64,000 nucleotides of DNA from Plumapathes pennacea (Eukaryota; Cnidaria; Anthozoa; Antipatharia; Myriopathidae): NCBI GenBank assembly GCA_964036295.1, contig OZ038466.1:8830001-8894000 (forward strand), written 5' to 3'. Shown here piece by piece: positions 1 through 54,215 of this stretch. The notes below the pieces were generated by a model. The model did not search any database, had not been told where the DNA came from, and saw only the letters and a list, made by a program, of their open reading frames with translations. Every line of letters starts with the position of its first letter. Position 1 is the first letter of the stretch. Both the position numbers and the translations under genes were made by a program.

Positions 1-3000
1 GGAAGATGCATAAATGTAAGGAAGATGCATAAATGTAAGGAAGATGCACAAATGTAAGGAAGATGCATAATTGTAAGGAAGATGTATACACGTACGGAAG
101 ATGCATAAATGTAAGGAAGATGCATATATGTAAGGAACATGCACAAATGTAAGTAAGATGCATACATGTACGGAAGATATATAAATGTAAGGAAGATGAT
201 ATATGTAAGGAAGATACATAAATGTAAGGAAGATACATACCTGTAAGGAAGATGCATAAATGAATGGAAAACTCATAAATGTAAGGAAAATGCATAAATG
301 TAAGGAAGATGCATAAATTAAAGGAAGATGCATGAATGTAAGGAAGATGCATACATGTGAGGAAGATGCATACGTGTACGGAAGATGCATAAATGGAAGG
401 AAGATGCATACATGTAAGGAAGATGCATACATGTAAGGAAGATGCATACACGTAAGGAAGATGCATAAATGTAAGGAAGATGCACAAATGTATGGAAGAC
501 GCATACATGTACGGAAGATGCATACATGTAAGGAAGATTGATACACGTCAGAAGATGCATAAATGTAAGGAAGATGCATATATGTAAGGAAGATCCATAA
601 ATATAAGGAATATGCATACATATACGGAAGATACATAAATGTAAGGAAGATGCATACATGTAAGGAAGATGCATAAATGTAAGGAAGATGTATAAATGTA
701 AGGAAAATGCATACATTTAAGGAAGATGCACAAATGTAAGGAAGATGCATACATCTACGGAAGATGCATACACGTACGGAAGATGCATAAATGTAAGGAA
801 GATGCGTACATGTATGGAAAATGCATAGATGTAAGGAACATGCATAAATGTACGGAAGATGCGTAAATGTAAGGAAGATGCATATATGTAAGGAACATGC
901 ATAGACGTAAGGAAGATGCATAAATGTAAGGAAGATCCATACATGTAAGGAAGACACATAAATGTGAGGAAGATGCATACATCTACGGAAGATGCATACA
1001 CGTACGGAAGATGCATAAATGTAAGGAACATGCATAAATGTAAGGAAGATGCATAAAAGTAAGGAAGATGCATACATGTACGGAAAATGCATAAATGTAA
1101 GGAAGATGCATACATGTAACGAAGATCGATAAATGTAAGGAAGATGCATACATGTAAGAAAGATGCATACATGCAAGGAAGACGCATAAATGTGAGGAAG
1201 ATGCATACATGTACGGAAGATGCATTTATGTAAGGAAGATGCATACATGTAAGGAAGATGCACAAATGTAAGGAAGATGCATACATCTACGGAAGATGCA
1301 TACACGTACGGAAGATGCATAAATGTAAGGAAGATGCGTACATGTATGGAAAATGCATAAATGTAAGGAAGATGCATACATGTAAGGAACATGCATAAAT
1401 GTAAGGAAGATGCATAAATGTAAGGAAGATGCATAAAAGTAAGGAAGATGCATACATGTACGGAAAATGCATAAATGTAAGGAAGATGCATACATGTAAC
1501 GAAGATCCATAAATGTAAGGAAGATGCATACATGTAAGGAAGATGCATACAGGTAAGGAAGTTGCATAAATGTAAGGAAGATGCATACATGTAAGGAAGA
1601 TGCACAAATGTAAGGAAGATGCATACATATACGGAAGATGTATCAATGTAAGGAAGATGCATATATTTAAAGAAGATACATAAATGTAAGGAACATACAT
1701 ACCTGTAAGGAAAATGCATAAATGAATGGAAAACGCATAAATGTAAGGAAGATACATAAGTGTAAGGAAGATGCATAAATGTAAGGAAGATCCATACATG
1801 TAAGGAAGATGCATACATGTAAGGAACATGCATAAATGAAAGGAAGATGCATAAATGTAAGGAAGATGCATAAATGTAAAGAAGATCCATACATGTACGG
1901 AACATGCATAAATGTAAGGAAGATGCATACATCTAAGGAAGATGCACAAATGTAAGGAAGATGCATACATGTAACGTAGATACATAAATGTAAGGAAGAT
2001 CCATACATGTAAGGAACATGCATACATGTAAGGAACATGCATAAATGTAAGGAAGTTGCATAAATGTAAGGAAGATGCATAAATGTAAGGAAGATGCATA
2101 CATGTACGGAACATGCATAAATGTAAGGAAGATGCATACATGTAAGGAAGATGCGCAAATGTAAGGAAGATGCATACATGTAGAGAAGATGCATAAATGT
2201 AAGGAAGATGCATATATGTAAGGAAGATTGATAAATGTAAGGAAGATACATACCTGTAAGGAAGAGGCATAAATGAATGTAAAAGCCAAAAATGTAAGGA
2301 AGACGCATAAATATAAGGAAGATGCATACACGTAAGGAAGATGCATCAATGTAAGGAAGATACATACGTGTAAGGAAGATGCATAAATGTACGGAAGATG
2401 CATAAATGTAAGGAAGATGCATATATGTAAGGAAGATGCATAGATGTAAGGAAGATGCATAAATGTAAGGAAGATCCATACATGTAAGGAAGACGCAAAT
2501 ATGTAAGGAAGATGCATACATGTAAGGAGCATGCATAAATGTAAGGAAGATGCATAAGTGTAAGAAAGATGTATGAATATAAGGAAGATGCATACATGTA
2601 CGGATGATACATGAATGTAAGGAAGATGCATACATGTAACGTAGATACATAAATGTAAGGAAGATGCATAAATGTAGGGAAGATCCATACATGTAAGGAA
2701 GATGCATACATGTAAGGAACATGCATAAATGTAAGGAAGTTGCATAAATGTAAGGAAGAAGCATAAATGTAAAAAAGATGCATACATGTACGGAAGATGC
2801 ATAAATGTAAGGAAGATGCATACATGTAAGGAAGATGCGTAAATGTAAGGAAGATGCATACATGTAGAGAAGATGCATAAATGTAAGGAAGATGCATATA
2901 TGTAAGGAAGATACATACCTGTAAGCAAGATGCATAAATGAATGTAAAAGCCAAAAATGTAAGGAAGACGCATAAATATAAGGAAGATGCATACACGTAA

Positions 3001-6000
3001 GGAAGATGCATCAATGTAAGGAAGATGCATACATGTAAGGAAGATGCATAAATGTAAGGAAGATCCATACATGTAAGGAAGACGCATAAATGTGAGGAAG
3101 ATGCATACATGTACGGAGGATGCATAAATGTACGGAAGATGCATAAATGTAAGGAAGATGCGTACATGTAAGGAAAATGCAAATATGTAAGGAAGATGCA
3201 TACATGTAAGGAACATGCATAAATGTAAGGAACATGCATAAATGTAAGGAAGATGCATAAATATAAGGAAGATGCATACATGTGCGGATGATACACGAAT
3301 ATAAGGAAGATGCATACATGTAACGAAGATGCATAAATGTAAGGTAGGTGCATACATGTAAGGAAGATGCATACACGTAAGGAAGATGCATAAATGTAAG
3401 GAAGATATGCAAATGTAAGGAAGATATACACACGTACGGAAGATGCATAAATGTAACGAAGATACATACATGTAAGGTAAATGCATAAATGTAAGTAAGA
3501 TCCATACATCTAAGGAACATGTATAAATGTAAGGAAGATGCATACATGTACGGAAGATGCATAAATGTAAGGAATATGCATACATGTGAGGAAGATGCAT
3601 AAATGAATGGAAAAGGCATAAATGTAAGGAAGATGCATAAATGTAAGGAAGATGCATACATGTAAGGAAGATGCATAAATGTAAAGCAAATGCATAAATG
3701 TAAGAAAGATTCATACATTTACGGAAGATGCATAAATGTAAGAAAGATGCATGCATGTAAGGAAGATACATAAATGTAAGTAAGATGCATACATGTTAGG
3801 AAGATGCATACATGTGAGGAAAATGAATAGGGAGAGACGAGAAGAGAAGAGGGAGACACGTATGGAAGATGGATACATCTAAGGAACATCCATACACGTA
3901 AGGAAGATCCTTAAATGTAATGAAAAGGCATAAACTAAATAATGGTTTATACATATACGGAAGATTCATACATGTAAGGAAGATTCATAAATGTAACGAA
4001 GATACATGCATGTAAGGAAGGTGCATAAATGTAAGGAAGATGTATACATGTAAGGAAGATGTATACACGTATGGAAGATGCATATATGTAAGGAAGATGC
4101 ATTTACGTACGTAAGATGCATAAATGTAATGAAGATACATACACGTATGGAAGATGCATGCATATTAGGAAGATGCATACACGTAAGGAAGATGCATAAA
4201 TGTAATGGAGATGCATACAATAAAGGAAGGTGCATCATGTAAGGAAGATTCATACGTGTAATTAAGATGCATAAATTTAAGGAAGGTGTATACATCTAAG
4301 GAAGATCTATACACGTAAGGAAGATCCATAAATTTAAGGAAGATGCATGCATGTAAGGAAGATGCATAAATGTAAGGAAGATTCATACATGTAAGGAAGA
4401 TGCATAAAAGTAAGGAAGATGCATATCTGTAAGGAAGATGCATACAAGTGAGGAAGATGCATAAATGTAAGGAAGATGCATAGATGTAAGGAAGATACAG
4501 ACATGTAAGGAAGATACATAAATGTAAGGAAGATGCATAAATGTGAGGAAGTTGGATGCAGTAAGGAAGATACATAAATGTAAGGAAGATGCATACATGT
4601 AAGGAAAATGCATACACGTAAGGAAGATGGATACAGGTAAGGAAGATGCATATATGTAAGGAAGATGCATACATGTAAGGAAGATGCATACATGTAAGGA
4701 ACATACATAAATCTAAGGAAGATACATACATGTCAGGGAGATGCATAATTCTAAGGAAGATGCGTACATGTAAGGAAGATGTATAATGTAAGGAAGATGC
4801 ATACATGCATGGAAGATGCATAAATGTAAGGAAGATGCATACATGGAAGGAATATGCATACACGTACGGAAGATGCATAAATTTAATGAAGATGCATACA
4901 CGTATGGAAGACGCATACACGTAAGGAAGATGCATACGTGTAAGGAAGATGCATACATGTATGGAAGATACATACATGTATGGAAGATACATACATGTAT
5001 TGAAGATGCATAGATGTAGAGAACATGCATATTTCTAAGGAAGATGCATACATGTAAGGAAGATATATAAATGTAGAGAAGATGCATAAATGTGAGAAAG
5101 ATACATACACGTAAGGAAGATGTACAAATGTAATGGAGATGGATACAGTAAAGGAAGATGCATGCATGTAAGGAAGATGCATAAATTTAAGGAAGATGGA
5201 TACATGTAAGGAAGATGCATAAATGTAAGGAAGATGCATACATGTAAGGAAGATGTATACATGTACGGAAGATGCATAAATGTAAGGAAGATGCATAGAT
5301 GTAAGGAAGATACGTACATGTATGGAAGATGCATAAATGTAAGGAAGATGGATACAGTAAGGAAGATGCATAAATGTAAGGAAGATGCATACACGTAAGG
5401 AAGACGAATACTCGTAAGGAAGATGCATAAATGTAAGGAAGATGCATACCTGTAAGGAAGATGCATGCATGTAATGAATATGCATAAATCTAAGGAAGAT
5501 TCATACATGTAAGGAAGATGGATAATTGTAAGGAAGATGCATACATGTATGGAAGATACATACATGTATGGAAGATGCATAGATGTAGAGAACATGGATA
5601 TTTCTAAGGAAGATGCATATATGTAAGGAAGATGCATGCATGTAAGGAAGATGCCTAAATGTAAAGAAGAGGCATAAATGTGAGGAAGATGCATACATGT
5701 AAGGAAGATCCATACATGTAAGGAAGATGCTTACATGTAATGAAGATGCATACACGTACGGAAGATGCATAAATGTAATGAAGATGCATACACGTAAGGA
5801 AGATGCATACATGTAAGGAAGATGCATACATGTATGGAACATGCATACATGTAAGGAACATGCATAGTGTTAAGGAACATTCATACTTCTAAAGAAGATG
5901 CAGACATGTACGGAAGATGGATACATGTAAGAAAGGTGCATATATGTAAGAAAGATGGATACATGTAAGGAACATGCATACATGTAATGAAGATGCATAC

Positions 6001-6930
6001 ATGTATGGGAGATAGATACAAGTAATGAATATGCATACATATAAGGAAGATGCATACCTGTAAGAAATATGCATACACGTAAGGATGATGCATAGACGTA
6101 AGGAAGATTCATGTATTTAAAGAAGATGCATACATGTAAGGAAGATGTATACTTCTAAGGTAGGTGCATATACGTAAGGAAGATGCATACACGTTGGGAA
6201 GATGCATACTCCTAAGGAAGATGGGTATGTGTAAGGAAAATGGATACACGTAAGTAAGATGGATATATGTAAGGAAGATGCATACTTCTAAGGAAGATGC
6301 ACACATGTAGGGAAGATTCATACATGTGAGGAAGATGCATACATGTAAGGAAGATGCGTACATGTATGGAAGATGCATACATGTAAGGAACATGCATAGA
6401 TGTAAGGAACTTCATATTTCTAAGGAAGATGCATACAAGTATGGAAGATGGATACATGTAAGGAAGTACATACATGTAAGAAAGATGGATATATGTAAGG
6501 AACATGCATACATGTAACGAAGATGCATACATGTAAGGAAGGTTCATACATGTATGGAAGATGGATACATGTAAGGAAGATACATACATTTGAGAAAGAT
6601 GGATATATGTAAGGAACATGCATACATGTAACGAAGATGCATACATGTAAGGAAGGTGCATAAATGTATGGAAGATGGATACATGTAAGGAGGATAGATA
6701 CATGTAAGAAAGATGGAAACATGTAAGGAAGATGCATATACGTAAGGAAGATGCATACACGTAATGAAGATGCGTAAATGTAAGGAAGATGCAAATATGT
6801 AAGAAGATGCATACGTGTAAGGAAGATGCATACATGTAAGGGAGATGCATACATGTAAGGAATATACATATGTGTAAGGAAGAAATATACATGGAAGGAA
6901 AATGCATAGATGTAAGGAAGATGCATACAT
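1..6930. repeat. 19-bp minisatellite array, about 360 copies
   Basis: The array is a near-continuous tandem repeat with consensus GGAAGATGCATAAATGTAA, or CATACATGTAA in its second half. It runs from the window edge to about 6930, where unique sequence begins. Marked variants recur at exact multiples of 19 bp. One variant starts at 751, 979 and 1283, spacings of 12 and 16 units. Another, at 2281 and 2946, is 35 units apart, and one at 6484 and 6598 is 6 units apart, so larger blocks have been duplicated. A non-repeat purine-rich patch of about 37 bp interrupts the array at 3822-3858. The unit has no stop on the minus strand and 19 is not a multiple of 3, so all three minus frames stay open for long stretches. 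These frames are a by-product of the repeat, not genes. Because the next exon downstream starts at a splice acceptor, the array probably lies in an upstream intron of the PUS7L-like gene. Confidence 0.97.
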
Positions 6931-7320: not shown

Positions 7321-10300
7321 GTGAGTACAAATAAGGGAGTGTTTTGCAGTTTTAGATATTAAGCACATTTTTTGAAGATTGAAAGCTCGGGAAGGCCTGC
7401 AGTTGACATAAGAACTGAAAATGCGTTCAACAGACACACAAAACAATGGTTTAAGGTCAGCAAATCATTACATTCCTGTGCATAAGTTTTATTTTATATT
7501 TGGCACTTGTGTTTTAAAGTTATTTTACTCCAATAAACTGTACCTTTTGATATCTGTAAGTGTAGAAAGATCTACTTTGAAGTTCTAACATGCCATGTAC
7601 ACTTTATAAACCAACTGAATTTTCAACTACATTGGAAAGGACTGGCCCCACAACCTTGCATGATTATTTCTCAATTAGGCGACTTGATTTATTCAAACAC
7701 TGTATGTCAACCTCATTCTAGTATGTTTGACTTAGGATGATAGCTTTCACAAGTGATTTTCACAGATTAGGTAGCATTGAATTCAAGATGGCTGCTGAAT
7801 ATGCAACTATAAAAAAATGTGAAGATTATATTAAAGCTTTTTGATTGACCAATTCTGTTTTAATAAACAGCCTAAATTTAGCCACAAGAAAAAATTTTAA
7901 AAAATTTCACTGATTGCACATGTCCACCTCTTTTCACTGAAGAGATCATCTAATGGTGGGACAGGATCTCAGGTAGGATCCTGGGTGGGATGGCGGGACT
8001 TGGTCCCAGGCGGTACCCACCTGGGATGTTCCATAATCCCGGGTAGCATGGTAGGACTGGGTCCCAGGTGGGACCATAATCCCGGGTGGGATGGCAGGAC
8101 TGGGTCCCAGGTGGGATCCCGCCTGGGATGTTTAATAATCCCGGGTGGGATGGCGGGACGGGATCCCAGGTGGGATCCCGCCTGGGATGTTCCATAATCC
8201 CGGGTGGGATGGCGGGACGGGATCCCAGGTGGGATCCCGCCTGGGATGGCAGGACTGGGTCCCAGGTGGGATCCCGCCTGGGATGTTCCATAATCCCGGG
8301 CGGGATGGTGGGACGGGATCCCAGGTGGGATCCCGCCTGGGATGGCGGGACGGGATCCCAGGTGGGATCCCGCCTGGGATGTTTAATAATCCCGGGTGGG
8401 ATGGCGGGACGGGATCCCAGGTGGGATCCCGCCTGGGATGTTCCATAATCCCGGGTGGGATCCCGCCTGGGATGGCGGGACTGGGTCCCAGGTGGGATCC
8501 CGCCTGGGATGTTCCATAATCCCGGGTGGGATGGTGGGACGGGATCCCAGGTGGGATCCCGCCTGGGATGGCGGGACTGGGTCCCAGGTGGGATCCCGCC
8601 TGGGATGTTCCATAATCCCGGGTGGGATGGCGGGATGGGATCCCAGGTGGGATCCCGCCTGGGATGTTCCATAATCCCGGGTGGGATCCCGCCTGGGATG
8701 GCGGGACTGGGTCCCAGGTGGGATCCCGCCTGGGATGTTCCATAATCCCGGGTGGGATGGTGGGACGGGATCCCAGGTGGGATCCCGCCTGGGATGTTCC
8801 ATAATCCCGGGTGGGATGGCGGGACGGGATCCCAGGTGGGATCCCGCCTGGGATGGCAGGACTGGGTCCCAGGTGGGATCCCGCCTGGGATGTTCCATAA
8901 TCCCGGGCGGGATGGTGGGACGGGATCCCAGGTGGGATCCCGCCTGGGATGGCGGGACGGGATCCCAGGTGGGATCCCGCCTGGGATGTTTAATAATCCC
9001 GGGTGGGATGGCGGGACGGGATCCCAGGTGGGATCCCGCCTGGGATGTTCCATAATCCCGGGTGGGATCCCGCCTGGGATGGCGGGACTGGGTCCCAGGT
9101 GGGATCCCGCCTGGGATGTTCCATAATCCCGGGTGGGATGGTGGGACGGGATCCCAGGTGGGATCCCGCCTGGGATGGCGGGACTGGGTCCCAGGTGGGA
9201 TCCCGCCTGGGATGTTCCATAATCCCGGGTGGGATGGCGGGATGGGATCCCAGGTGGGATCCCGCCTGGGATGTTCCATAATCCCGGGTGGGATCCCGCC
9301 TGGGATGGCGGGACTGGGTCCCAGGTGGGATCCCGCCTGGGATGTTCCATAATCCCGGGTGGGATGGCGGGACGGGATCCCAGGTGGGATCCCGCCTGGG
9401 ATGGCGGGACTGGGTCCCAGGTGGGATCCCGCCTGGGATGTTCAATAATCTCGGGTGGGACGGCGGGACTGAGTCCCAGGTGGGATCCCGCCTGGGATGT
9501 TCCATAATCCTGGGTGGGATGGCGGGACTGGGATCCCGCCTAGGATGGCGGGACTGAGTCCCAGGTGGGATCCCGCCTGGGATGTTTAATAATCCCGGGT
9601 GGGACGGTGGGACGGGATCCCAGGTGGGATCCATAATCCCGGGTGGGATGGCGGGACGGGATCCCAGGTGGGATCCCAGGTGGGATCCCGCCTGGGATGG
9701 TGGGACTGGGTCCCAGGTGGGATCCCGCCTGGGATGTTCAATAATCCCAGGTGGGACGGCGGGACTGAGTCCCAGGTGGGATCCCGCCTGGGATGTTCCA
9801 TAATCCTGGGTGGGATGGCGGGACTGGGATCCCGCCTGGGATGGCGGGACTGAGTCCCAGGTGGGATCCCGCCTGGGATGTTTAATAATCCCGGGTGGGA
9901 CGGTGGGACGGGATCCCAGGTGGGATCCATAATCCCGGGTGGGATGGCGGGACGGGATCCCAGGTGGGATCCCAGGTGGGATGCCGCCTGGGATGGTGGG
10001 ACTGGGTCCCAGGTGGGATCCCGCCTGGGATGTTCAATAATCCCAGGTGGGACGGCGGGACTGAGTCCCAGGTGGGATCCAGCCTGGGATGTTCCATAAT
10101 CCCGGGTGGGATGGTGGGACGGGATCCCAGGTGGGATCCTGCCTGGGATGGCAGGACTGGGTCCCAGGTGGGTTCCGCCTGGGATGTTCAATAATCCCGC
10201 CTGGGATGGCAGGACTGGGTCCCAGGTGGGATCCCGCCTGGGATGTTCAATAATCCCGGGTGGGATGACGGGACTGTGAAACATCCCAGATGGGATCCCG

Positions 10301-13300
10301 CCTGGGATGTTTGATAATCCTGGGTGGGAAGGCGGGACGGGATCCCAGGTGGGATCCCGCCTGGGATGTAACATAATCCCGGGTGGGATGGTGGAACGGG
10401 ATCCCAGGTGGGATCCCGCCTGGGATGTTCGATAATCCCAGGTGGGATGGTGGGACGGGATCTCAGGTGGTATCCCGCCTGGGATGTTCCATAATCCCGT
10501 GTGGGATGGTGGGACTGGGTCCCAGGTGGGATCCCGCCTGGGATGTTTCACAGTCCCGGGTGGGATGGCAGGACAGGATCCCAGGTGGTATCCCGCCTGG
10601 GATATTCCATAATCCCGATTGGGATGGTGGGATGGGATCGCAGGTGGGGTCCGACCTGGGATGTTCCATAATCCTGAGTGTGATGGCGGGACGGGATCCC
10701 AGGTGGGATCCCGCCTGGGATGTTCCATAATCCTGGCCGGGATCTCAGGTGGGAGAAACTCGGGATCCCGGGTGGGATTGGCGGGATCCTACCGCTTTTT
10801 TACCTTGGATCACATTTTTGCCAAATAAATGTAGGAATAATGTGTCTTGAAGTGTTACAGCTAGTGTAACAGCTGTAGTATAGACTGTACTTCAGTCCTG
10901 GATGCATGTTTGCAGGGGCCATCAGTGAGAAGTCCAGGCGTGCAGTGGTCCATTTGAACTGCAGGATATCATTTCCTTTTCTGAAGACCAGCACAGTAAG
11001 AAACAAGGAGGTAATTTAACAATCATATAGCTTTTTTGGTTGATTTCTATGGACGATCTATTACATTTTATTATGTGATTGATATTTTTGTTGCCAGTGA
11101 CCCAAAATCAGCCAGACTGTAGACAGGTTGCATTCAGTGACCAAGTGATTCTAATCCTCTTTCCTTGAACCTTCTTGGTTTGTCTGTTGTTCATTTGGCT
11201 CCCTATTTTTACTCCACTGAAACTTGCTGTGTTTGACTGCTTTGTATATGAAGTCTCCAGGATTTATAATATATTTTACTCCACTGTTTCAAAGAATGGA
11301 CAGATAGAAGTCCTTGTGGGTAGAGATCCTGTGTATTGGGAGTTTCTTGGCTTGTTGGATGACAGAGAGAAAGTGGACATGTAAGTTGGTTATTAATTAG
11401 GAATGTGGTTCGACCTTTACAATGCATGTGTTCCCTATCTACAATTTGTACATGGTGGGTTTCTATGACGATCTTCAAATCAAGGCAAACTTCACATATT
11501 TGACGTAACTGATTAGTTTAATAGGACTGGGAAAATGACAGGTTCTTCTCTTGCTTGGGTTGAAGCTGATTATACAAGCAATCCTTCCAACACTACTCAT
11601 ACATGCACATCTTGTTAAGGAAAGACAGAAATAATTTGGCTCTAGATTGATACACTTGCGTTCAACTTGTCTCTCAGGTTCATTAGCTTTGCCCACTGTG
11701 TCAACAAGAGATCTCCTGCATCCTATGACTTGTCAGTCAAGAAGGACAAAGAACACAGGACACAAGTGGGTGCATAGTGATAATTATGTTTAATTTTATT
11801 GTCATTCTGTGGAACAAAATATGGATTGCTTAGCTTGTTCTGTAGGTCCACAGGCTGATCGCAAAGCACTATGGATCATTCTTGGAGACCAAAACATTTA
11901 CTCCACGAGTTCAAGTATGTAGGCAGAAGAAGGTGCAGTCTAGTGGGGGTAGTTACATCCAAGCCAGAGTGCGTGTAAAGCTGCCCAGGAAGACGACACA
12001 CCCTACTTCTTCATCCCAGGTGAGCATTTCCATAGTGTGGCTAACCCTGTGTGTTGAAGTGTTTCTAACCCTATTTCATTTCATTTCCTTTCCTTTACCC
12101 ACAGGCCTCACAGGATCACACAGGGTTTGTCATGTACAAGAGAAACCTGGTAAGGAAGGGTATTGTAGAATATACTGTTGTTTTAATTTTTTTGCTATGG
12201 CACAGTTTCTTCTCATATGATAGAAAATGTCTGAGTATGGTCGACCATAGCCATGATTTATGTCTGGTCATTGTCGATCATGATCAAGAAATATTGTTGA
12301 TCAAGTTCAAGATGATGGTTGACCATGGTCAGGAAACATGTCTCATGGCTAGAATTTATGTCTGACCATGGTCAGCCAATGTCAGAAAAAATGTCCGACC
12401 ATGGCCAAGAAATATTGCTGACCATGTTCAATTATGGTCAGAGCGTTTTGTCTGCCCATGGTCGACTAAGGTCAGGATTTATCTTTGGCCATAGCAAGGA
12501 AACATGTCTGAGTATGGTCGACCATGATCAGGATCATTTCTGACCATAGTTGACCACGGGCAGTAAACATTGCTGACCATGTTCGACCATGGTCAATATT
12601 TATGTCTAGTCATGGATGACCATGATCATAAAACGTCGCTAACTATCTTCAGCCATGGTTAAGATTTTTGTCTTAGAATGGTCGACCATGGCCAGGAAAC
12701 ATGTCTGACCACTGTCGACTATGGTCAAGATTAATGTTTGACATGGTCAGGATTTATGTCTGACAATGGTTGCCCGTGGACAACAAACATCACTGATCAT
12801 GGTCGACCATGGTCAAGAAACATCGTAATCATCTTCAACCATGGTCAGGAATTTTGTCTTAGAATGTTCGACCATGGCCAGGAAACATGTTTGAAGTCAC
12901 CGTTGGAAAGGTACAAAAGAAGAGGAGATGTACATTTAGGATTTGGGACATTTATAGGAAGGGATACAGGAAGAGACATACTGTAAGGGATATAGAAAGA
13001 AATGGGACGTGGGAACAGTTAAAGGAAGGACTGTATAGGGAGGGACATTGCAGTGGGACACTGGAAGGGCTACATAGGAAGGGAAAAAAGGTGTTTTTGC
13101 GAAGGGACATGATACAAGGTTTGCAGGAGTTTCATTTTGCGGATTGGCGTATTTTGCGGGAGAATAATTTCGCGATTCAGGCTGGGAACTTTTTTTCCCG
13201 ATTTTTGATTCAGAAACGGCATTCAAAAAAGATGAAACAGAATCTTGTCAACTTTTGTTTCTTGTCAAGTTATGGTAATGCTGCAACGACACTGGCTGAC

Positions 13301-15276
13301 GTCTATGATTGTTGAAGGTGACACGGTAATGACGTAGCAACAAAATCAAACAAAAGGGATAACCCTCTCTACCATATTGTTTCAATACGCACGTTTGCAT
13401 AGGAAAGTGAATTTGGTATTTATTTGACTGGAGGGAGTGAATTATTTCGGAGAACTAGTGTGCGAGAGTTTTGTTCCGTGGGGCGGAGGCAAAATCGCAG
13501 ATCCTGCTAAAAAATTCATTCGGGAAGGGATATATAAAAAAGCGTTTCGGAATGGGTATAAGAAGGGATATTGGAAGGGACATTAAATGGGAAACAGGGA
13601 AAGCGAGTTATACAGTGTCTTTTATTGATGAATTCTATGTTATGTTTTTTTTTGCATTAGGAGACTCTGGAAGCTATCCAGCGTCTTGCACAGTGTCTGT
13701 CTACACACCCATCAGCCTTTAGTTATGCTGGGATAAAGGACAGTAAAGCCGCCACAACACAGTTTGTTGTAGTCAGAGGAATCACTCCTGAACAGTGAGC
13801 AGCTTTTTTCTAAGTACTTTATTTGCACATATTCTTTGAGAAGCGATTTGATTTATTCCAGGATAGGGTTAGCGATGTTAATCCGTAAAACTCTTTGGTT
13901 TGGAGCTGACTTGGGTAGATGTGTATCGGGTTCTTTTTAGGTATTATTCCGGAAAAACCCAATCGAACTTAACATTGTGCGAGGTTTGTTTCTATCCTTG
14001 GTGTTTAGATATGGGTATGTGTCTTCCGTTTAAAAGTCATTTTGTCTGCCATTTCACCTTAGGTTACACGCTGTGAGAGACCACCCCTCCCTTGATGGCA
14101 TCACGACTGGTAACTACAGAAGAGGTGCCACTCCTATTAGAATGGGGCAGCTGTCAGGAAACCACTTTGTTGTTATTATCAGGGAAGTGACCTGGTGAGT
14201 GACAAATGCTTAATGCTCTGTGCCTCGTTTGAGTGCCTTGTAAAGGCCACCCAATGCACTGACTAACTGAGACCCTCTAACTTAGAAGTGATAACATTTG
14301 CACCAAATAGAAACCGTTTTGTGGTACCGCTTTATTTTAAATAGCTCTGTTGTTGATCTACATTTCACGAATCCAAGCTTGTATACTCCGTGAACAAGAC
14401 TAAGTTTGAATAGTAGGTTGATTGTGATCGTCCGGGTTAGTCACAGGAAAAAATTTTGAAAAACCATTATTGGGTATTTGAATGGTAAATCCTAAATTCA
14501 CAGCCAAAAACCCATCATTGGGAAAACAGAACTATACCCATTAATGGTTTTGTATCAAAACCATTAATGTAAATTCATTTCCCATTCTGTGTTTTGGATG
14601 AATACCATTTATGGTTTCTCAACCATCTTTGGTGGTTTTGATGTATTTCCCATTAACAGTTTGTTGTTAGTTAGAATGGGCTATCAAGCAATGCCACGAA
14701 TGGTTCCCCAGTTTCTCAAGTGTTTTTGTTTGTTTCCCATTATAAGTATTCCCATTATCGTTCATGGGTATTCATGTGATACCCATTTATGGTTTTCCGA
14801 TTTCTGGAGTGGGTTTTGTGTGTTTCCCGTTATGATATTCCAATTATCATTCGTGAGTTGTCATTTGATTTCCATGGATGGTTTCTTACCAAAAAAGTAG
14901 TATGAACCATATATGGCCCTGATATGGGTTTATATGGAAAGATATGTGAACAAAATATGGATCTTACATAGTGTTTATATGGCCATGTTCAATCCACATA
15001 GTTAATGTGTTTATAAAATAACTATGATACTTTGCGTGTTCTGGTTGGCTAAAACCATGTAAGATATGAGAGTATATTACAGGCTGATGTGACACATGAT
15101 GTATTTTATTGACTAATTGTTGTATAAAATAAATATATAACGCGTTCCCATGTAATATAGTCTCATCTAAACACTTGGGAAGTTGTGAGAACACCAGAAT
15201 AGATAGGGAAGGCCACTTGGCGGCCTCGTTGTTTACCTGCGCTACTCTCATGTTCTTTCACTTTCTGCGTGTTTAG

Positions 15277-15352
<76 letters not shown>

Positions 15353-18300
15353 TAATAATAATACTGATGATGATGATGATGATAATAATAATAATAATAT
15401 AATAATGGTTTAATGAAGCATTTCTACAAAGTAGCTCTACATCTTCAACATAATGAAATAAAAGATAAAAGATACATAGTAAATACTATATATACATAAT
15501 GTGCACAGCGTAAAAGTGAATAAAAACATCCTAATTATTTACCTATTCAAGCCTTGCACTTGCTTTGCTCGCTAATAAATAAATAAAAAACTCTTAATGA
15601 AGCTATATTGCACAGGAGTGTGTTATATATTTCAAGCTCTTGTACATTATTGGATTGATACATAATTTAATTAGATTAATGACCAGTCGTTTTGGTGCAT
15701 CCCTTGTATTGACTGGAAGGGATGCACCAAAATGACCGGTCGTTTTGGCGCATCCCTTCTAGTGACTGGAAGGGATGCACCAAAATGACCGGTCGTTTTG
15801 GTGCATCCCTTGTATTGACTGGAAGGGATGCACCAGAATGACCGGTCGTTTTGGTGCATCCCTTGTATTGACTGGAAGGGATGCATCAAAATGACCGGTC
15901 GTTTTGGTGCATCCCTTCCAGTCACTAGAAGGGATGCACCAACACGACCGGTCATTTTGGTGCATCCCTTGTATTGACTGGAAGGGATGCATCAAAATCA
16001 CCGGTCGTTTCGGTGCATCCCTTGTATTGACTGGAAGGGATGCACCAAAATGACCGGTCGTTTTGGTGCATCCCTTGTATTGACTGGAAGGGATGCACCA
16101 AAATGACCGGTCGTTTTGGTGCATCCCTTGTATTGACTGGAAGGGATGCACCAAAATGACCGGTCGTTTTGGCGCATCCCTTCTAGTGACTGGAAGGGAT
16201 GCACCAAAATGACCGGTCGTTTTGGTGCATCCCTTGTATTGACTGGAAGGGATGCACCAGAATGACCGGTCGTTTTGGTGCATCCCTTGTATTGACTGGA
16301 AGGGATGCATCAAAATGACCGGTCGTTTTGGTGCATCCCTTCCAGTCACTAGAAGGGATGCACCAAAACGACCGGTCATTTTGGTGCATCCCTTGTATTG
16401 ACTGGAAGGGATGCATCAAAATCACCGGTCGTTTTGGTGCATCCCTTGTATTGACTGGAAGGGATGCACCAGAATGACCGGTCGTTTTGGTGCATCCCTT
16501 CCAGTCAATACAAGGGATGCACCAAAATGACCGGTCGTTTTGGTGCATCCCTTCTAGTGACTGGAAGGGATGCACTAAAACGACCGGTGAAAGGGATGCA
16601 CCAGAATGACCGGTCGTTTTGGTGCATCCCTTGTATTGACTGGAAGGGATGCATCAAAATGACCGGTCGTTTTAGTGCATCCCTTCCAGTCACTAGAAGG
16701 GATGCACCAAAATGACCGGTCGTTTTGGTGCATCCCTTATATTGACTGGAAGGGATGCACCAAAATGACCGGTCGTTTTGGTGCATCCCTTGTATTGACT
16801 GGAAGGGATGCACCAAAATGACCGGTCGTTTTGGTGCATCCCTTGTATTGACTGGAAGGGATGCACCAAAATGACCGGTCGTTTTGGTGCATCCCTTCTA
16901 GTGACTGGAATACAGTCAATACAAAGTAATTTTTCAAAACTGGAAATTATTAATGTCAAAAATTAATCATTAATGGGTTTTTTTTGTAAGAATGTGAATT
17001 TAGCAAAACCCGCTAATAGTTGCAGTAATCCATTAATGGTTTTTCAGAAAACCACATTAATGTGTCACAACTGATGTAAACATTCTTGTGTTTTGAAAGC
17101 CATGCATGGATTTTGTTGGATTCCCAACATGTATTTCCAACAATTGCCATGAATGGTAATTTTTCAAAACTGGGAAATTATTAATGTCAAAAATTAACCA
17201 TTAATGGGTTTTTTTGTAAGAATGTGAATTTAGCAAAACCCACTAATAGTTGTAGTAATCCATTAATGGTTTTTCAAAATTTTTTTCTGTGAGTGTAGTC
17301 TCCAGGAAGACTATTGTTGGTGATTGACGTTGTTTCGACTCCCTGAGCGGAGGTCATCTTCAAAGTAAACTGTCTCAAAGAACACCGACTGAAACTTACA
17401 CGACTACAACATACCAAAAACCCGCAACCGACCAAAACCGGATGCTTACGCAAGGGTGCGTTGGAACCGCCTCCTGGAACTCTGAAGATGACTTTCACTT
17501 AGGGAGCCGAAACGCAAGTCACCAACAACAGTCTTCCTGGAGACTACTCTAACCGGACGATCACAACCTACTGTTCACACTCCTGGGTTCAAACCATTTG
17601 CCATAAGTCTGAACGTGATAGAATTGCTAGTACTTGCAAGAACTAGTTTTAAAAGTGCGTCGGCCTGGAAATGAGACCCGGTGGGGAACTCCCATATAAA
17701 AAAGGACGGAGATTCTAGTCGTACCTCTTAGAGGTCAAAATCACGGGTGTTGGTACCGCTTAGGGTGCTCAACATCAAACGCTGACATTTTTATGTGAAG
17801 TCGTACCGTTTAGGGGTCGGGTGTCAGTCGAATGAACTTTTTTGGTTTGAAAACAGCAAGGGATAAAGGTCTTCATGATATTATCTTTATTAGAATTAAA
17901 GGCATCGAAACTTTAAATTCTTGGTATGCCTTTATTGGTACTTTTTAGGAGTAAAAATAAGCTTCGAGGGTCTTGCTTGTGTTTACTAGTCTTGTTTCAA
18001 ATATTACAGTAAACCTGGTGTCAGTTGTGAAGATGCTATCGAGGTAAGGACACCCAGGTTGCTTGTTTAGTATTCTTGCCGGGTTGGGGGACTTTCTTTA
18101 GAGTGTTACAGCAGCTAAAAGACCTTTATTGCAACATCGTATTGTTGCAAATCGCAATTTGAAATTTTCTTGTGTAACATCACCTGTAAATTGGTGAAGA
18201 AAGCCCAAATGCAAAAGAATCAAATTTGTCGTCAAATTTGTGATACAAGCGCAAGAGAATGAGAACTTCTCCATTTTCTTGTGCTTGCGCTTGCTTTACA

Positions 18301-24448: not shown

Positions 24449-24484
<36 letters not shown>

Positions 24485-27400
24485 TTTTTCCGCCGGTCCA
24501 GATACACTCTTACTCACATGCCAACCTGCATTCATTTCACGGAACCAAATTTGCAAGAACAAAGGGCAATTCCCAGAATACATGTACCCATGTGTGATTG
24601 CCTCCTGAAAGTCATGCTGGGATACGATATGTCCGAGAGAGACGAGGAACGAGTGCAAGCTTTTGAGGACTGCTGCGTGACTGTGAGTGTTATCGACCAA
24701 AATAAAGCGGTGAGTATGCCGCTGAAAAACTTAAGAAAACTACTGGACACCCAAGAGTGGACTAGGATCCAAAGAGCCAACGAAGAAGGGACTGAGAATA
24801 GTAACACAAATGGGGTCCGCGATGGACCACTGGAGACTGGCACAAGGGGCCCACAGACTTTCGGTCAGACGGCCATAAGTCGTTCAATCAGTGATCGACA
24901 GCCTGGGCCCACTGACACGGCTAAATGCAACACAGCGGAACCACATATTCGTGACCAGTTGGAAGTGATGGAGATAAGCGGCGACAAATCAGATAACGCA
25001 CTTGTGAGGCATTTATCACAACATGCTTTCAAAAAAAGCGAAGATAGTGGAGCTACAGGGAAAGTCGTGAAGGAGGGCGCGACCATTGGCAAACTGGATA
25101 CAAAAACAAAGGACTTCTTGCCAGGTAAACTGATAAAAAAAAACTCAGATGGACGTTCTACTCGTGCCTAGCACCAAATCACGCAAATGAGAAGTTGTGA
25201 TATAGGACTTCATTTTCTTAAAGGCCGATTTTCACTAGTGAAGTAAGCGGAGACGGAGAAGGAGACGGAGACGTAAGACACTTGCGCGCGTGTGAAAATT
25301 AGCGAACGGAGACGGAAGCGGAGAAGGAAGCGGTGAAGGAAGCAGAACGGAAGGTTTTCTTTTTCTTGCGTCTCCGTCTCCGCTTACTTCGGTTACGTTC
25401 ATCTCCGTTCGCTAATTTTCACACGCGCAAGTGTCTTACGTCTCCGTCTCCTTCTCCGTCTCCGCTTACTTCACTAGTGAAAATCGGCCTTAAGAGTTTG
25501 CTTTGAAAATTAGCTTGTGGCAACTTTTGCAACTACTTCCGTTCCAAACGTCAACACAAAGAACGCAACTTGATAATTGACTTGGCTCACATTGAGCTGT
25601 TTTCGGATAACTGTCGAATATGATTGTGGTTGCTTTAGGTTTGCGTTTACTACGCTTTCTGATTGATCTAAACAACTTTAGCAGCATTCTTGGCCAATCA
25701 AGAGCAAAAGCGATGTTCTCATTCAAGAAAGCAAGTGGTGATAGCGTGTTCTCGCACGTCTGATTGGTTTCCTGTTCAAAGAAAAGTCAAGCGCGGATTA
25801 CTTTGTTCTGATTGGTTGAAAGTGTTTCTGTACAGCCTCTGTGATTGGCGGTGTACTTACCTTGGTATTGGTTTTCGACAGTCATCCGAAAACTGCTATA
25901 TTATTACTACTAAGACTGCAAAACCTATATTACTGCTACTTATAATAACTTATTGTAGTCGCGAAACGCTTTATCAGTAGCTAACGGTGAAGTACATGTT
26001 AGAATAACAGAATGCTACTGGTGGTAAATGTGCAATGCGTGCTTTTCACAGGTCCAACGTGCTCATCAGCCCAAGGATTAGAATCTTTTTCCGTGGGGAC
26101 CCTCTCACAGTGTTTGACTCGCCAACGAAATTTCAACACCACAGCGGAGCTGACAGAGCACTTTTCAGGTCCTTCTGGGACACACGGCTGTGCCAAGTCA
26201 ACCGAACCACCCCTGCACCGAAAAGAGCTTCATAAAGACGCTATTGCTCCCGTCACTTTCCCTGTGATTGCTGATAAAGCACAATTGTATTGTTGTGACA
26301 AAGAACTGCCAATTGTAGAAACGTTAAACTCAGCGAAATCAGACCGGGAAGTGATTAGTGTTGGAACAGATGACGGCCAAGGAGTCAGTAGTGCAAGCAG
26401 TAGCGGAACTGAAAACGAGGATGTTACCGCCCATTCTATATCAGCCGCACTTACAGCGACCTCAACCAATCAGATCGTGGCATTATCCTCACCAGGCCCT
26501 TGCAGGGTGAGCTCCTCCCGCACTGCTTCTGTTCTGGACGAGTCGTTCATACAACTTTTGAGCAAAGTAGGTTTAGCCTTGTTTCACACAGCAAGCACTC
26601 TCAAAACTCCAGCCATGCTGCAGAACGTCGGTGATTCAAGTCACGCACGGTGTGTCACTCAACAAAACCAAGCCCCCGGACAGTCGTTCATTCAAGAGCT
26701 CGGAAGTGTCCCAGATCAGACACAGGCTATTGTCGCGCAACATGGACGACCTTGTATCATTGCAAAATCAAGAAAGGCTGATGTCACACAAATGGAGGAA
26801 ATTGTCACGTCACTAGGACAGTCTTCCGCCACTCCAGGACAAGGTTTTGTCACGCAAATAGGGGAAATTATCAACCAAGTACAAAAATTTGTCACGCAAC
26901 GGGGACAGAGTAATGTTTCGCAGCAAAAGCAGTCGTCCCTGAGGCACAATCATGTAGACGTAGTGCAAACAGTTGATTCTTGGAAAGCTCGAAAGCCGAT
27001 GTCGTCTGGGCAAATGGTTGCGACGCCACTCGAAGAAGTCACCTCAGCCAGTCAGTTGAAGCGGCAAGGCGCTGATGTTGCACAATCTGAGCCCAGCGTT
27101 GCTCCTTATTCGCCAGCTTACATTGGACAGTTACACCAAGCAATGGACCAAGCGCAGAAACTGCAACGGCAGGAGGAACTGAACCGGCGCCAGGTAGTCC
27201 TTCGAAGCGTCGATTTGGGATCAGTCGATGCTACAGATTGCCTGGAAAAGTCGGCAGAAAGAGAAAGCCCGAAACCTCTTCAACACAGAGCCATTCTTTG
27301 GAAACAAGCCTCTGCCTCACATGCTAGCGTCATCGTTCCCTCCGAGATAACACCTATCCATTCCTTCAAAAATCTACCGTCCGCTGCCACTTCAGTTGCT

Positions 27401-29278
27401 CCAATCCAACTATCAGGGAGAGATGGAAACACAGTCCTTACAGAAGTAAGAAGCCCACATTACGCGACACTACCACATGCCAAGCACGTGTTGGGCACGT
27501 GCACCGCCACACACCCTGTTCACATGACGGTGACGTCCTCGCGCGTGCCACCTGTATTCCCTTTGCCTCCAGCAGAACATGCTGCGGCATTAACCAGTGG
27601 AAGTACAGAGAGCGTATTTGTGTATGAGAGACTACCCACGGGAGCAGTACGCTATTTACAGCCTCCCTTGAAGCCACTTCGCTTTTTGTTGCCTAAGGGA
27701 CATTGGTACCCGTCGCTTTCCACGGTATCCGGTTCTATGCAGCCTGAAGTGCCTGATTTGCACCTTAAATCAACCCAGACTTCCACTTTGTGTTTTTGTG
27801 GAGCTCCTGGCTACATGCCGACAACACAGTCGTTCCCCGCCTACTTTACTCAACAACACAGCCAAGTTTTGGATTCCCTGTCAGGGGGAGCTCGGCCACA
27901 AGCACCTCTCTTGAACCTGCCGACTGGAATCCAATCTCAAGGTACAATTCTCTCTCCTAGTGTACCTCAACAGCACCTCGCTCCTGGCCCCTTTCTTGCC
28001 CAGAGACATAGTCAGCAAACCTTTGTTCTGACTGGGACGGAAGCCCAGGGAAAAATAATACATGGGCCACAACAACCTGGTCCCCTTCTCGCTGGAACGC
28101 AAACTCAAGTATCGACACTGCATCTGAGTCAACGTAAACAGCAAATCATGGTTGGGCCCCCTCTGGCTGGGATACAAAATCAGGGGCCTAGTGAGCTTCA
28201 ACAGCGGCCACATGCGGGGCTTCTCCTTGCTGGGACACAAGCTCAAGGGTCGACGCTGCATCCGAGTCAACCTAAACAGCAATTCACATCTAGGCGCCTT
28301 CTGACTGGGATACGAAATCAGGAGTCCAATGAACTACAACAGCGGCCTCATGCTCGACCCCTTCTTGCTGGAACCCAAGCTCCAAGAACGATAACTAGTC
28401 TCACTGAACATGAACAGCGACCCACATCCGGTCCCTTTAGCGGTACGACGCGAGTTCAGGGGAATAAAATCCGCCCTACGTCTGGACCTGTTGTTACTGC
28501 GAGACAGCTTCAGGAGACTACAACTCGCCCTTCGATACTTCGTCGGACTCCTAAAGTGGTTCACGCACGAGGGTCTTTTTGTGGTCATTCAGATTCACGA
28601 GATAGAGGATCGAAACATCTTCACAGCTGTCCACGAAACAAGCCACCAGTGTGCCTTCCCATTGGAGCACATCACCAGATGGATGTGTGTCGCTCGACTC
28701 GCACACCAGTGCACAGACATGACGTAACGTCGCATTATTCAAGTCCTCATGCAAGATCTCCAGTGCGCTTACCTGCACAAACGTCACTACCGGCTGCCTG
28801 TCACACTCCAACTGATCTACGCAGAAGGCAACTCAACGGCCGAGCCGTCCATAGTGTAGTGCATCCTCAATGGTCGAAACAGACGCACGACTCGATCACA
28901 TGTACCTCTGCCAAAGGACTACGTCACGAGAATTCGTTGAATGGTAGGGATAGACCAGAATTCCAAGACACCAAGTGCTCGTTCGTGACGTCACAAGCTT
29001 ACACTCCGGGCACTTCCCTGGCAAGCTGGTCTGCAAGTCCAAGTCTAAGCCCGCGCCTAGACTTAGCAACTGAAACCTGCCAGTCTTTAAGACCACTACC
29101 TTGTGATGTGACACGTGATAGACACGTGGAAACCACGTGCGTGAAGCGTGAACGTGAGCAAGACTTTCATGCGCAGCGTGTCTTGATCTCTGCTCTGAAA
29201 AACGGTAAGACAAGCCGCAAGCGAAAAGCAAGTGGAAAAGCTGGCAACTTTCAGAAGAGGGTCCGGTTTGCTCTTTAA
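22990..29278 (+). CDS. unrecognised 1332-residue Gln/Ser/Pro-rich protein
   Basis: Five coding exons join in frame: 22990-23040, 23287-23313, 23585-23655, 24502-25124 and 26052-29278, totalling 3999 bp. Residues 1-50 are Ser/Gln/Thr-rich. Residues about 50-125 are the most protein-like part, with hydrophobic runs and Cys residues (RYTLTHMPTCIHFTEPNL, MCDCLLKVMLGYDM). The giant last exon is low in order. It has Gln-rich repeats (VTQ, GQS) and, at about 875-1085, degenerate repeats of about 28-34 residues around LLAGTQxQG. The C-terminus has a basic nuclear-localisation-like stretch, KTSRKRK, and ends QKRVRFAL, which fits the RVxF docking motif for protein phosphatase 1. I do not recognise the family. 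A nuclear, cell-cycle-related role is inference from the promoter and these motifs. Confidence 0.75.
23671..23894. mobile_element. MITE with TAAGGCCATGTCA termini
   Basis: The left end TAAGGCCATGTCA is matched by TGACATGGCCTTA at the right end, and inner segments rich in TTGCAAC/GTTGCAA also pair. The element is about 224 bp and starts 15 bases after the exon ending at 23655. Related GTTGCGAGA/TTGCAAC words occur at about 20545-20640. Confidence 0.75.
24117..24381. mobile_element. non-autonomous element with GTAAGCGGACA repeats
   Basis: Ends of the form ACAGTCAACTCCCTCTTAAC and, inverted, GTCCGCTTACGGGAGCTTCA bracket internal repeats of CTCGTAAGCGGACA. Similar GTCCACTT sequence lies around 37255-37305. 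No frame is present. It lies in the intron before the exon at 24502. Confidence 0.55.
24449..24490. repeat. (TTG)n microsatellite and T-tract at a splice acceptor
   Basis: About eleven GTT triplets followed by eight T residues lie directly before the acceptor ccggtccag at 24493-24501. The run forms part of the pyrimidine-rich tract of that splice site. Confidence 0.9.
25218..25493. mobile_element. TTAA-flanked MITE with long inverted repeats
   Basis: TTAA at 25218-25221 and 25490-25493 flank a 268-bp element whose arms of about 95 bp are nearly perfect complements. They contain CACTAGTGAAGTAAGCGGAG and GGAGACGGAGAAGG words. The element lies in the intron between 25124 and 26052. It resembles piggyBac-type MITEs in target site only; no transposase is seen. 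Confidence 0.8.
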
Positions 29279-50150: not shown

Positions 50151-50267
50151 GTTTTTCAAGGCTTCCGTTCTTTGAATTCGCACAAGTAAACATTCACCAC
50201 TCGCTGCACGTACCTTTTACTCCGTGAAAGAAAGTATAAGTAATCGCTCCAAAAGTAGTCCTGGCAG

Positions 50268-53404: not shown

Positions 53405-54215
53405 CTTTGGTCGCCGCGGACTTCCTTCTTCGCTTCACGAATGTGCACTTCACAGCAGCCAGAAAGAGAAGATGTCTTCGCCGCGGACTTTGTTCTTCGC
53501 TTGACTAATGTGTAATTCACAGTAGCTGGAACAGAAGATGCCTTCGCCGCGGATTGCCGTCTTCGCTTGGCGAATGTACACTTCATAGCAGTCAGGAACA
53601 GAAGATACCTTCGCCGCGGACTTCGTTCTTCGCTTGACGAATGTGTACTTCACAGCAGCCAGAAAGAGAAGATGTCTTCGCCGCGGACTTTGTTCTTCGC
53701 TTGACTAATGTGTAATTCACAGTAGCTGGAACAGAAGATGCCTTCGCCGCGGATTGCCGTCTTCGCTTGGCGAATGTACACTTCATAGCAGTCAGGAACA
53801 GAAGATTCCTTCGCCGCGGACTTCGTTCTTCGCTTGACGAATGTGTACTTCACAGCAGCCAGAAAGAGAAGATGTCTTCGCCGCGGACTTTGTTCTTCGC
53901 TTGACTAATGTGTAATTCACAGTAGCTGGAACAGAAGATGCCTTCGCCGCGGATTGCCGTCTTCGCTTGGCGAATGTACACTTCATAGCAGTCAGGAACA
54001 GAAGATTCCTTCGCCGCGGACTTCGTTCTTCGCTTGACGAATGTGTACTTCACAGTAGCAGAAACAGAAGATGCCTTCGCCGCGGATTGCCTTCTTCGCT
54101 TGACGAACGTGTACTTCACAATAGCAGGAACAGAAGATGCCTTCGCAGCGGATTGCCTTCTTCGCTTGACGAATGTGCACTTCGCAGCAGTCAGGAACAC
54201 AAGATGTCTTCACTG
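53405..54215. repeat. central satellite: 200-bp higher-order repeat of three 66-67-bp units
   Basis: Units share CTTCGCCGCGGA, TTCTTCGCTTGACGAATGTG and CACAGCAG...GAACAGAAGATG. Three slightly different units form a 200-bp block seen at about 53450, 53650 and 53850, followed by single units to 54215. A lone diverged unit occurs at 55139-55210. Both strands stay open over long stretches because of the repeat. Confidence 0.93.

What the first reader, a model, noticed from the sequence alone, without database searches (positions are those of the whole stretch)
15681..16909. Hairpin satellite whose loops occur in both orientations
Seen directly: each 53-bp monomer has arms TTTTGGTGCATCCCTT and AAGGGATGCACCAAAA around an 11-base loop. 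Both loop types, GTATTGACTGG and CTAGTGACTGG, also appear as exact reverse complements inside otherwise unchanged monomers. At about 15918 and 16341 the following GACCGGTC junction is inverted as well (CACGACCGGTCATT in place of ATGACCGGTCGTT). At 16500 and 16684 only the loop is inverted. The simplest inference is repeated inversion by recombination or template switching between the arms, so the array works as a passive multi-state inversion cassette. I know of no described satellite with this property.
Basis: partly seen in the sequence, partly recalled or inferred. Interest (0 to 1): 0.72.

Follow-up and report, generated by a model that had tools for sequence, protein, structure and literature searches.

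The report
Transposon-borne hairpin repeats, occasionally inverted
A 53-base hairpin repeat inside a small mobile DNA element has a few copies whose loop is turned round; this is rare, mostly inherited by block duplication, and fits a known copying error at inverted repeats, not an active switch.

Summary
Window 15681-16910 holds 22 full 53-bp hairpin monomers plus a cut one, and 4 loops (from 15918, 16342, 16501, 16686) are exact reverse complements of the others. The inference of a flipping cassette is not supported.

The array sits in a 2,850-bp transposon copy (14442-17291; 32-bp terminal inverted repeats, AGT on both sides) of a 290-Mb eukaryotic assembly. I collected 1,123 monomers in 32 arrays; they hold 551 of 553 genome-wide exact hits to one loop type. 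Of 1,112 loops given a direction, 1,086 follow their array's majority and 26 (2.3%) do not; 20 of 32 arrays have none. Common arm variants stay on their own arm.

In the window, three of the four turned loops (5, 13, 19) sit in three copies of one block, and an 85-bp exact inverted match puts the fourth in a turned copy of the same two-monomer piece. Two or three past events suffice. The whole array is also reversed relative to its near transposon end, unlike 21 of 21 other ends with an array within 425 bp.

Best explanation: rare template switching or short inversion between hairpin arms, spread by block duplication.

The parts
14442..17291 (-). Non-autonomous TIR DNA transposon copy, 2,850 bp, that carries the array
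   Evidence: 32-bp inverted termini, 30 of 32 bases alike; AGT on both sides
14439..14441 (.). 3-bp target-site duplication AGT, left copy
17292..17294 (.). 3-bp target-site duplication AGT, right copy
14442..14473 (+). Left TIR (type ending ATTATTGG); the first 244 bp of the element are shared at 98.8% with both ends of L010 and the left end of L029
16913..17291 (-). Right end of the element (TIR ending ATTAATGG plus about 350 bp with two sub-repeats); in sibling copies the array starts here
15681..16910 (+). 53-bp hairpin satellite array: 22 complete monomers and one cut monomer
15906..15958 (+). Monomer 5: C-type loop inverted (15918-15928), following junction in the reversed form
16330..16382 (+). 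Monomer 13: same loop and junction state as monomer 5, 424 bp away in a block copy (257 bp exact)
16489..16541 (+). Monomer 16: T-type loop inverted (16501-16511), both junctions forward
16674..16726 (+). Monomer 19: C-type loop inverted (16686-16696), both junctions forward; preceded by an 83-bp exact copy of the stretch before monomers 5 and 13
16331..16415 (+). Arm 1 of an 85-bp exact inverted repeat (monomers 13-14)
16491..16575 (-). Arm 2 of the 85-bp exact inverted repeat (monomers 16-17)
16898..16922 (-). Hinge between reversed array and right end: on the - strand GTATTGACTG-TATT-CCAGTCACTAG, where siblings run on as GTATTGACTGGAAGGG

Best explanation
The array is the internal tandem repeat of a non-autonomous TIR transposon. 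Each 53-bp monomer is almost a perfect palindrome (arms, loop and junction), so any left arm can pair with any right arm of the array. Rarely, replication or repair switches template at such arms, or a short inversion occurs between them; one loop, or a run of loops with their junctions, is then written in reverse. Unequal exchange and block duplication copy the turned loops afterwards. In the window about two or three such events, plus one reversal of the whole array at a GACTG/CAGTC hinge, account for what is seen. Shown: the turned loops, the inverted and direct block copies, rarity in this assembly, the transposon context. Inferred: that the event was template switching and not reciprocal inversion, the number and order of events, and how the whole array came to be reversed. 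The arrays have no shown function; extra binding sites for a transposase are a possibility that the Tetris paper raises for similar elements.
For: Turned loops are exact reverse complements. 85-bp exact inverted match between monomers 13-14 and 16-17, and 51 bp between 17 and 19; the string C-type loop plus CACTAAAA occurs only in this array among the fetched loci, once in each direction. Direct block copies of 257, 148 and 83 bp exact. Elsewhere single-loop patches with both junctions unchanged (L013, L014), a two-loop patch (L021) and a four-loop patch (L018, exactly inverted over up to 166 bp relative to forward copies in the same array). Three tested pieces fold as hairpins with z -8.0 to -8.7. 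Transposon: 41 TIR ends at up to 3 mismatches, control 0; 11 copies paired by position and direction, 7 of 11 with a perfect 3-bp duplication. Literature: template switching between short inverted repeats causes arm homogenisation and spacer inversion, the latter seen only with arms over 9 bp, and reversible (PMC8604942, abstract and passages seen).
Against: Arm homogenisation, the other expected trace of template switching, was not found: 1 compensated variant against a shuffled mean of 1.7 (the test has little power at so low an expectation). Reciprocal inversion is therefore not excluded. The (1 loop, 1 junction) patch at monomers 5 and 13 cannot come from one arm-to-arm inversion; it needs two steps. 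In L018 the AGTG arm variant of monomer 19 stands twice on the left arm beside a forward C loop, so 19 may be a separate loop-only turn and not a plain block copy. No reads or other individuals were available, so an assembly error in the array cannot be ruled out.
Confidence: 0.8

Rival explanations
1. Passive multi-state inversion cassette: loops flip often and reversibly in place by recombination between their own arms.
For: Loop-only patches exist in the window (16, 19), L013 and L014. At what looks like the homologous monomer, with the same neighbours on both sides, L014 has a turned loop and its duplicate locus L015 a forward one, in sequence 98.7% alike. L018 has the arm variant of window monomer 19 beside a forward loop.
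Against: Direction is 1,086 to 26 where frequent flipping would approach equality. Arm-specific variants stay put: R5A 94 against L5A 8, R2C 80 against L2C 6 among majority-direction monomers. The L014/L015 loops also differ by a base (T type against A type), so it is not a clean flip. Window events collapse to two or three.
Confidence: 0.07
2. Purely structural origin: the element once had arrays pointing inward from both ends (foldback form, as in L029 and L010). Deletion and exchange between the two opposed arrays mixed monomers of both directions; no flipping at single hairpins was needed.
For: L029 and L010 are palindromic copies with opposed monomers (449 of 492 and 721 of 790 bases, comparison capped at 800 bp). 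Loops point inward at 21 of 22 ends with an array within 425 bp; the window's right end is the exception, and its left end, 1,252 bp away, sees the array as inward. L009 holds two opposed arrays with 273 bp exact inverted identity.
Against: Loop-only patches with both junctions unchanged (window 16 and 19, L013, L014) need exchange within one hairpin. The L013 and L014 arrays have no inverted exact match of 60 bp or more.
Confidence: 0.25
3. Assembly or consensus error: the array was put together with some monomers in the wrong direction.
For: Monomers are near-identical and short; no reads were available.
Against: Turned loops carry arm variants and sit inside longer exact inverted blocks; the assembly has 24 contigs and resolves arrays of up to 100 monomers.
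Confidence: 0.06

Closest known systems
Tetris foldback transposon with TIR-220 tandem repeats, Drosophila virilis (PMC4079207; abstract and passages seen)
   Same: Non-autonomous TIR element; tandem repeats of variable number inside the terminal repeats; ends shared with another element family; foldback form, as in sibling copies L010 and L029.
   Different: Here the repeat is 53 bp and a hairpin, and some monomers hold it inverted. The window copy has only 32-bp TIRs. No sequence comparison with Tetris was made.
Spacer inversion and arm homogenisation by template switching at short inverted repeats, yeast (PMC8604942; abstract and passages seen)
   Same: Loop between perfect arms replaced by its exact reverse complement; arms over 9 bp; reversible in principle.
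   Different: There hairpins in yeast genes; here hairpins in tandem, with multi-loop patches and block duplication. Arm homogenisation was not found here.
Small hairpin-loop inversions of chloroplast genomes (passage in PMC12928735 that cites an earlier study; search listing)
   Same: 5-50 bp inversions between 11-24 bp inverted repeats that form stem-loops, called flip-flop there.
   Different: Organelle genomes; here nuclear repeat arrays in a transposon.
CACTA/EnSpm (tnp2) superfamily (recalled features)
   Same: CAC-initial TIRs, 3-bp target-site duplications, larger copies with ORFs related to a tnp2-like transposase.
   Different: Termini CACAG, not CACTR (recalled rule); Pfam matches only below cut-off.
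Helentron-borne satellite-like arrays, Pacific oyster (PMC7492417; search listing and start of abstract only)
   Same: Dispersed short tandem arrays carried by a non-autonomous mobile element.
   Different: Rolling-circle element, no TIR or 3-bp duplication expected (recalled).

Membership tests
Non-autonomous TIR DNA transposon with internal tandem repeats | Inverted termini shared by dispersed copies | tested here: met
   41 ends at up to 3 mismatches, control pattern 0; window TIR 30 of 32
Non-autonomous TIR DNA transposon with internal tandem repeats | Target-site duplication of fixed length | tested here: met
   Perfect 3 bp in 7 of 11 paired copies, window AGT/AGT; L011, L029, L020, L031 fail at 3 bp
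Non-autonomous TIR DNA transposon with internal tandem repeats | Ends shared with larger coding copies | tested here: met
   Window left end 91.7% over 303 bp with the right end of L036 (15.9 kb); window right end 94.6% over 240 bp with its left end; ORFs
Foldback element (Tetris-like) | Long TIRs that contain the tandem repeats at both ends | tested here: not met
   Window TIR only 32 bp; met by sibling copies L010 and L029
CACTA/EnSpm | 3-bp target-site duplication (recalled) | tested here: met
   7 of 11
CACTA/EnSpm | Termini CACTR (recalled) | tested here: not met
   Termini CACAG
CACTA/EnSpm | tnp2 transposase in the autonomous partner | tested here: inconclusive
   L036 ORF: DUF4218 E 0.028; 44%-identical 862-aa genomic relative (L049): Transposase_21 E 0.0022, both below cut-off; other L036 pieces no tnp2 match; the whole-genome PF02992 search lists 23 matches, none inside L034-L035 or L036-L037, but scores only the best candidates
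Template-switch spacer inversion | Loop is exact reverse complement between arms over 9 bp | tested here: met
Template-switch spacer inversion | Arm homogenisation | tested here: not met
   1 compensated, 488 single-arm variants in 1,113 monomers; shuffled mean 1.7, sd 1.3, so little power
Template-switch spacer inversion | Ancestor and descendant states seen between individuals | not testable with these tools
   one assembly, no reads; paralogues L014/L015 differ at one loop but not cleanly

The most novel reading that the evidence does not exclude
Tandem hairpins in this transposon act as a natural recorder of template switching: each monomer holds one orientation bit that is rewritten now and then during replication or transposition, so arrays differ in loop states between chromosomes or tissues of one animal.
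Probability: 0.08. Interest if true: 0.6.

Novelty: new member of a known kind. Interest (0 to 1): 0.3.

Why it matters
It shows how a palindromic repeat carried by a transposon collects inverted pieces of one, two or four loops without losing its direction overall, and gives a natural set of over 1,100 near-identical hairpins for measuring how rare spacer inversion is in a nuclear genome. If loop states proved variable within an individual, the arrays would be a ready-made assay for template switching.

Tried and rejected
Rfam scan of the window at gathering scores: no match. Pfam on the forward ORFs 24449-25171 and 26012-29278: none; the 1,813-aa minus ORF is a Pao-type polyprotein outside the element. 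The mechanical ORF at 15759-16379 was not taken as a gene because it lies inside the repeat. Helitron or Helentron membership was considered after and dropped when both TIRs and the 3-bp duplication appeared. Origin of the 53-bp unit from the larger copies: no arm, junction or loop within 2 mismatches in L034, L036, L030 or L031. A PDB sequence search with one L036 ORF gave one chance-level hit, E 0.24. Junction direction as independent evidence of inversion was dropped because it is one CpG transition per side. The first arm test (1 compensated, 490 single, shuffled mean 4.8) mixed array directions and was replaced. Enrichment of turned loops in the window against the other arrays: 4 of 22 against 22 of 1,090, Fisher P 0.0013; by events (2 of 22 against 14 of 1,090, counted by eye) P 0.038; the window was chosen for this feature, so neither is a fair test. 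Genome-wide pattern counts allowed too many mismatches to separate loop and junction classes and were not used. Paper searches for a satellite with turned hairpin loops listed none that I recognised as such; I saw listings only for these. Species was not identified. Coverage limit: completeness (551 of 553) was measured with one T-type pattern only; arrays of other loop types alone could be missing.

Full report
What is there. The window is G000:C5:8830001-8894000, part of a 290-Mb assembly in 24 contigs. At 15681-16910 lies a 53-bp tandem repeat of 22 complete monomers and one cut monomer. Each monomer is a hairpin: 16-base arms (both exact as quoted in 8 of 22), an 11-base loop, and a 10-base junction around GACCGGTC. 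Folded as single-stranded DNA, three tested pieces gave -21, -22 and -23 kcal/mol against shuffled means of -5.5 to -6.3, z -8.0 to -8.7.

It is the inside of a transposon. Comparing flanks of 21 loci (20 fetched plus the window) showed a sharply bounded stretch of about 380 bp beside the array in nine of them. A search with its outer 32 bases, up to 3 mismatches, found 41 ends genome-wide, 0 for the control pattern; I fetched the surroundings of 39 of the 41. The window copy runs from 14442 to 17291, with TIRs alike in 30 of 32 bases and AGT on both sides. Of 11 copies whose two ends I paired by position and direction, 7 have a perfect 3-bp duplication; L011, L029, L020 and L031 do not (L020 has 4 bp, TTTA). 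Four sibling copies (L011, L020, L026, L028) share the window's left 700 bp at 97.7-99.0%, which suggests recent spread. Two larger copies (L034, 12.8 kb; L036, 15.9 kb) share both subterminal regions, lack the 53-bp unit and carry ORFs. One ORF matches DUF4218 weakly (E 0.028) and a 44%-identical genomic relative with an 862-aa frame matches Transposase_21 weakly (E 0.0022), both below cut-off. With the CAC start and 3-bp duplication this points to the CACTA/EnSpm group (features recalled), but the termini are CACAG and the transposase test is inconclusive, so I do not file it there.

How common are turned loops? The fetched loci hold 551 of the 553 genome-wide exact matches to one T-type pattern. 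They contain 1,123 monomers in 32 arrays (split at gaps over 150 bp; 6 of the 32 have 1-4 monomers). 1,112 loops could be given a direction, 11 not. 1,086 follow their array's majority and 26 do not: window 4, L018 5, L029 4, L021 3, L010 2, L039 2, and one each in L013, L014, L016, L020, L022 and L028. Six of the 26 belong to the opposed halves of the foldback copies L029 and L010. 20 of 32 arrays have none; the 6 stubs are among these.

Are the window's four independent? Hardly. Monomers 1-6 and 9-14 are copies 424 bp apart, with 257 bp exact (15686-15942 = 16110-16366), so 5 and 13 are one event. The 83 bp before monomer 19 (16591-16673) are an exact copy of those before 13 (16247-16329) and 5 (15823-15905), so 19 most simply descends from the same block with later changes in one arm base and the next junction. 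Monomers 13-14 (16331-16415) are the exact reverse complement, over 85 bp, of monomers 16-17 (16491-16575); the state [inverted C loop, reversed junction, forward T loop] is therefore the state [inverted T loop, forward junction, forward C loop] turned round. Monomers 17 and 19 share 51 bp exactly inverted, and the string C-type loop plus CACTAAAA occurs only in this array among the fetched loci, once in each direction. Against a plain block copy, L018 twice has the same AGTG arm variant on the left arm beside a forward C loop, so 19 could also be such a monomer with its loop alone turned. One single-loop turn, one two-loop turn and block duplications suffice, with perhaps a third event at 19. 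Number and order are inference.

The whole array is turned as well. At the 22 ends with an array within 425 bp, loops point inward at 21; the window's right end is the only outward one, and the other 12 such ends of its type (ATTAATGG; L014, L015 and L024 are duplicates of one locus) are inward. At the 6 ends with the array farther off, 3 are inward (the window's left end, L020, L028) and 3 outward (L009, L011, L026). At the window's right junction, read on the minus strand, the sibling sequence GTATTGACTGGAAGGG is replaced by GTATTGACTG-TATT-CCAGTCACTAG, a foldback-like hinge. In sibling terms the window's four minority loops have the usual direction and its 18 majority loops the unusual one. 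An alternative is that the window keeps a left-end array that met the right end by deletion.

Mechanism. An inversion between two opposed arms of the array must turn n loops and n-1 or n+1 junctions. Loop-only patches with both junctions forward (window 16 and 19, L013, L014) fit. A four-loop patch in L018 is exactly inverted, over up to 166 bp, relative to forward copies in the same array, though a junction beside it is turned too. Other patches have ambiguous junctions or lie at array ends. Junction direction is weak evidence: it depends on two bases, each one CpG transition from the perfect palindrome; with loci turned to their main direction (so that the shorter opposed array of L009 counts as reversed) the two bases are T..G in 826, C..G in 174, C..A in 39, T..A in 12 and other in 26 of 1,077 junctions. 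Template switching between inverted repeats is known to invert spacers and to homogenise arms (PMC8604942, abstract and passages). Spacer inversion is met here; homogenisation is not: among 1,113 monomers (10 of the 1,123 dropped for loop length or missing arm) there is 1 compensated arm variant against 488 single-arm ones, shuffled mean 1.7, sd 1.3, a test of little power. Common variants keep their side among majority-direction monomers (R5A 94 to L5A 8, R2C 80 to L2C 6). So hairpin exchange looks rare, and reciprocal inversion is an equal candidate.

Is it active? The nearest thing to a change in time is the pair L014/L015, duplicate loci 98.7% alike over 3.1 kb, part of the array included: L014 monomer 17 has a turned T loop where L015 monomer 13, with the same neighbours on both sides, has a forward A loop. 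The base difference means it is not a clean flip, and unequal exchange could explain it. Nothing tested here bears on variation within an individual.

Comparison. Transposons with tandem repeats inside their ends are known, for instance Tetris (PMC4079207, abstract and passages); flip-flop of small hairpin loops is described for plastid genomes (passage in PMC12928735). The sibling copies L029 and L010 are foldback-like (449 of 492 and 721 of 790 bases inverted, comparison capped at 800 bp); the window copy is not. Searches listed no paper that I recognised as describing a satellite with turned hairpin loops; that is a statement about those three listings only. Verdict: a real, moderately unusual repeat, an undescribed member, as far as searched, of a known kind of element, with a known kind of rare inversion.

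Noticed in passing
window 1-6930: 19-bp tandem repeat (GGAAGATGCATACATGTAA), about 365 copies, 81% matches, reaching the left edge of the window.
   Followed up: no
window 7978-10733: GC-rich repeat of 59-bp and longer units full of GGGATCCC-type palindromes; a second quasi-palindromic satellite in the same window.
   Followed up: no
window 44742-50183, minus strand: 1,813-aa open frame with Pao peptidase, DUF1759, DUF5641 and integrase zinc-binding matches and a below-cut-off reverse transcriptase match: a BEL/Pao-type retroelement.
   Followed up: no
L014, L015, L024 (C6:21.1, 20.3 and 22.3 Mb): Three copies of one locus, transposon end and array included, L014 being 98.7% and 98.8% like the others over 3.1 and 2.5 kb, with arrays of 40, 36 and 9 monomers.
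   Followed up: partly
L036+L037 (C8:6105936-6121829) and L034+L035 (C2:13591794-13604581): Large coding relatives with the same TIRs and 3-bp duplications but no 53-bp repeat; their ORFs are much alike. A third locus with the same ORF (99%) lies at C5:12515118, about 10 kb from a TIR end at C5:12525713.
   Followed up: partly
L009 (C11:1753103): A right transposon end stands directly against a second array of opposite direction (58 and 19 monomers, 273 bp exact inverted identity), so one element may have landed in or beside another's array.
   Followed up: partly
window 53411-54211: 67-bp tandem repeat with a 200-bp higher-order unit, 4 copies at 95%.
   Followed up: no
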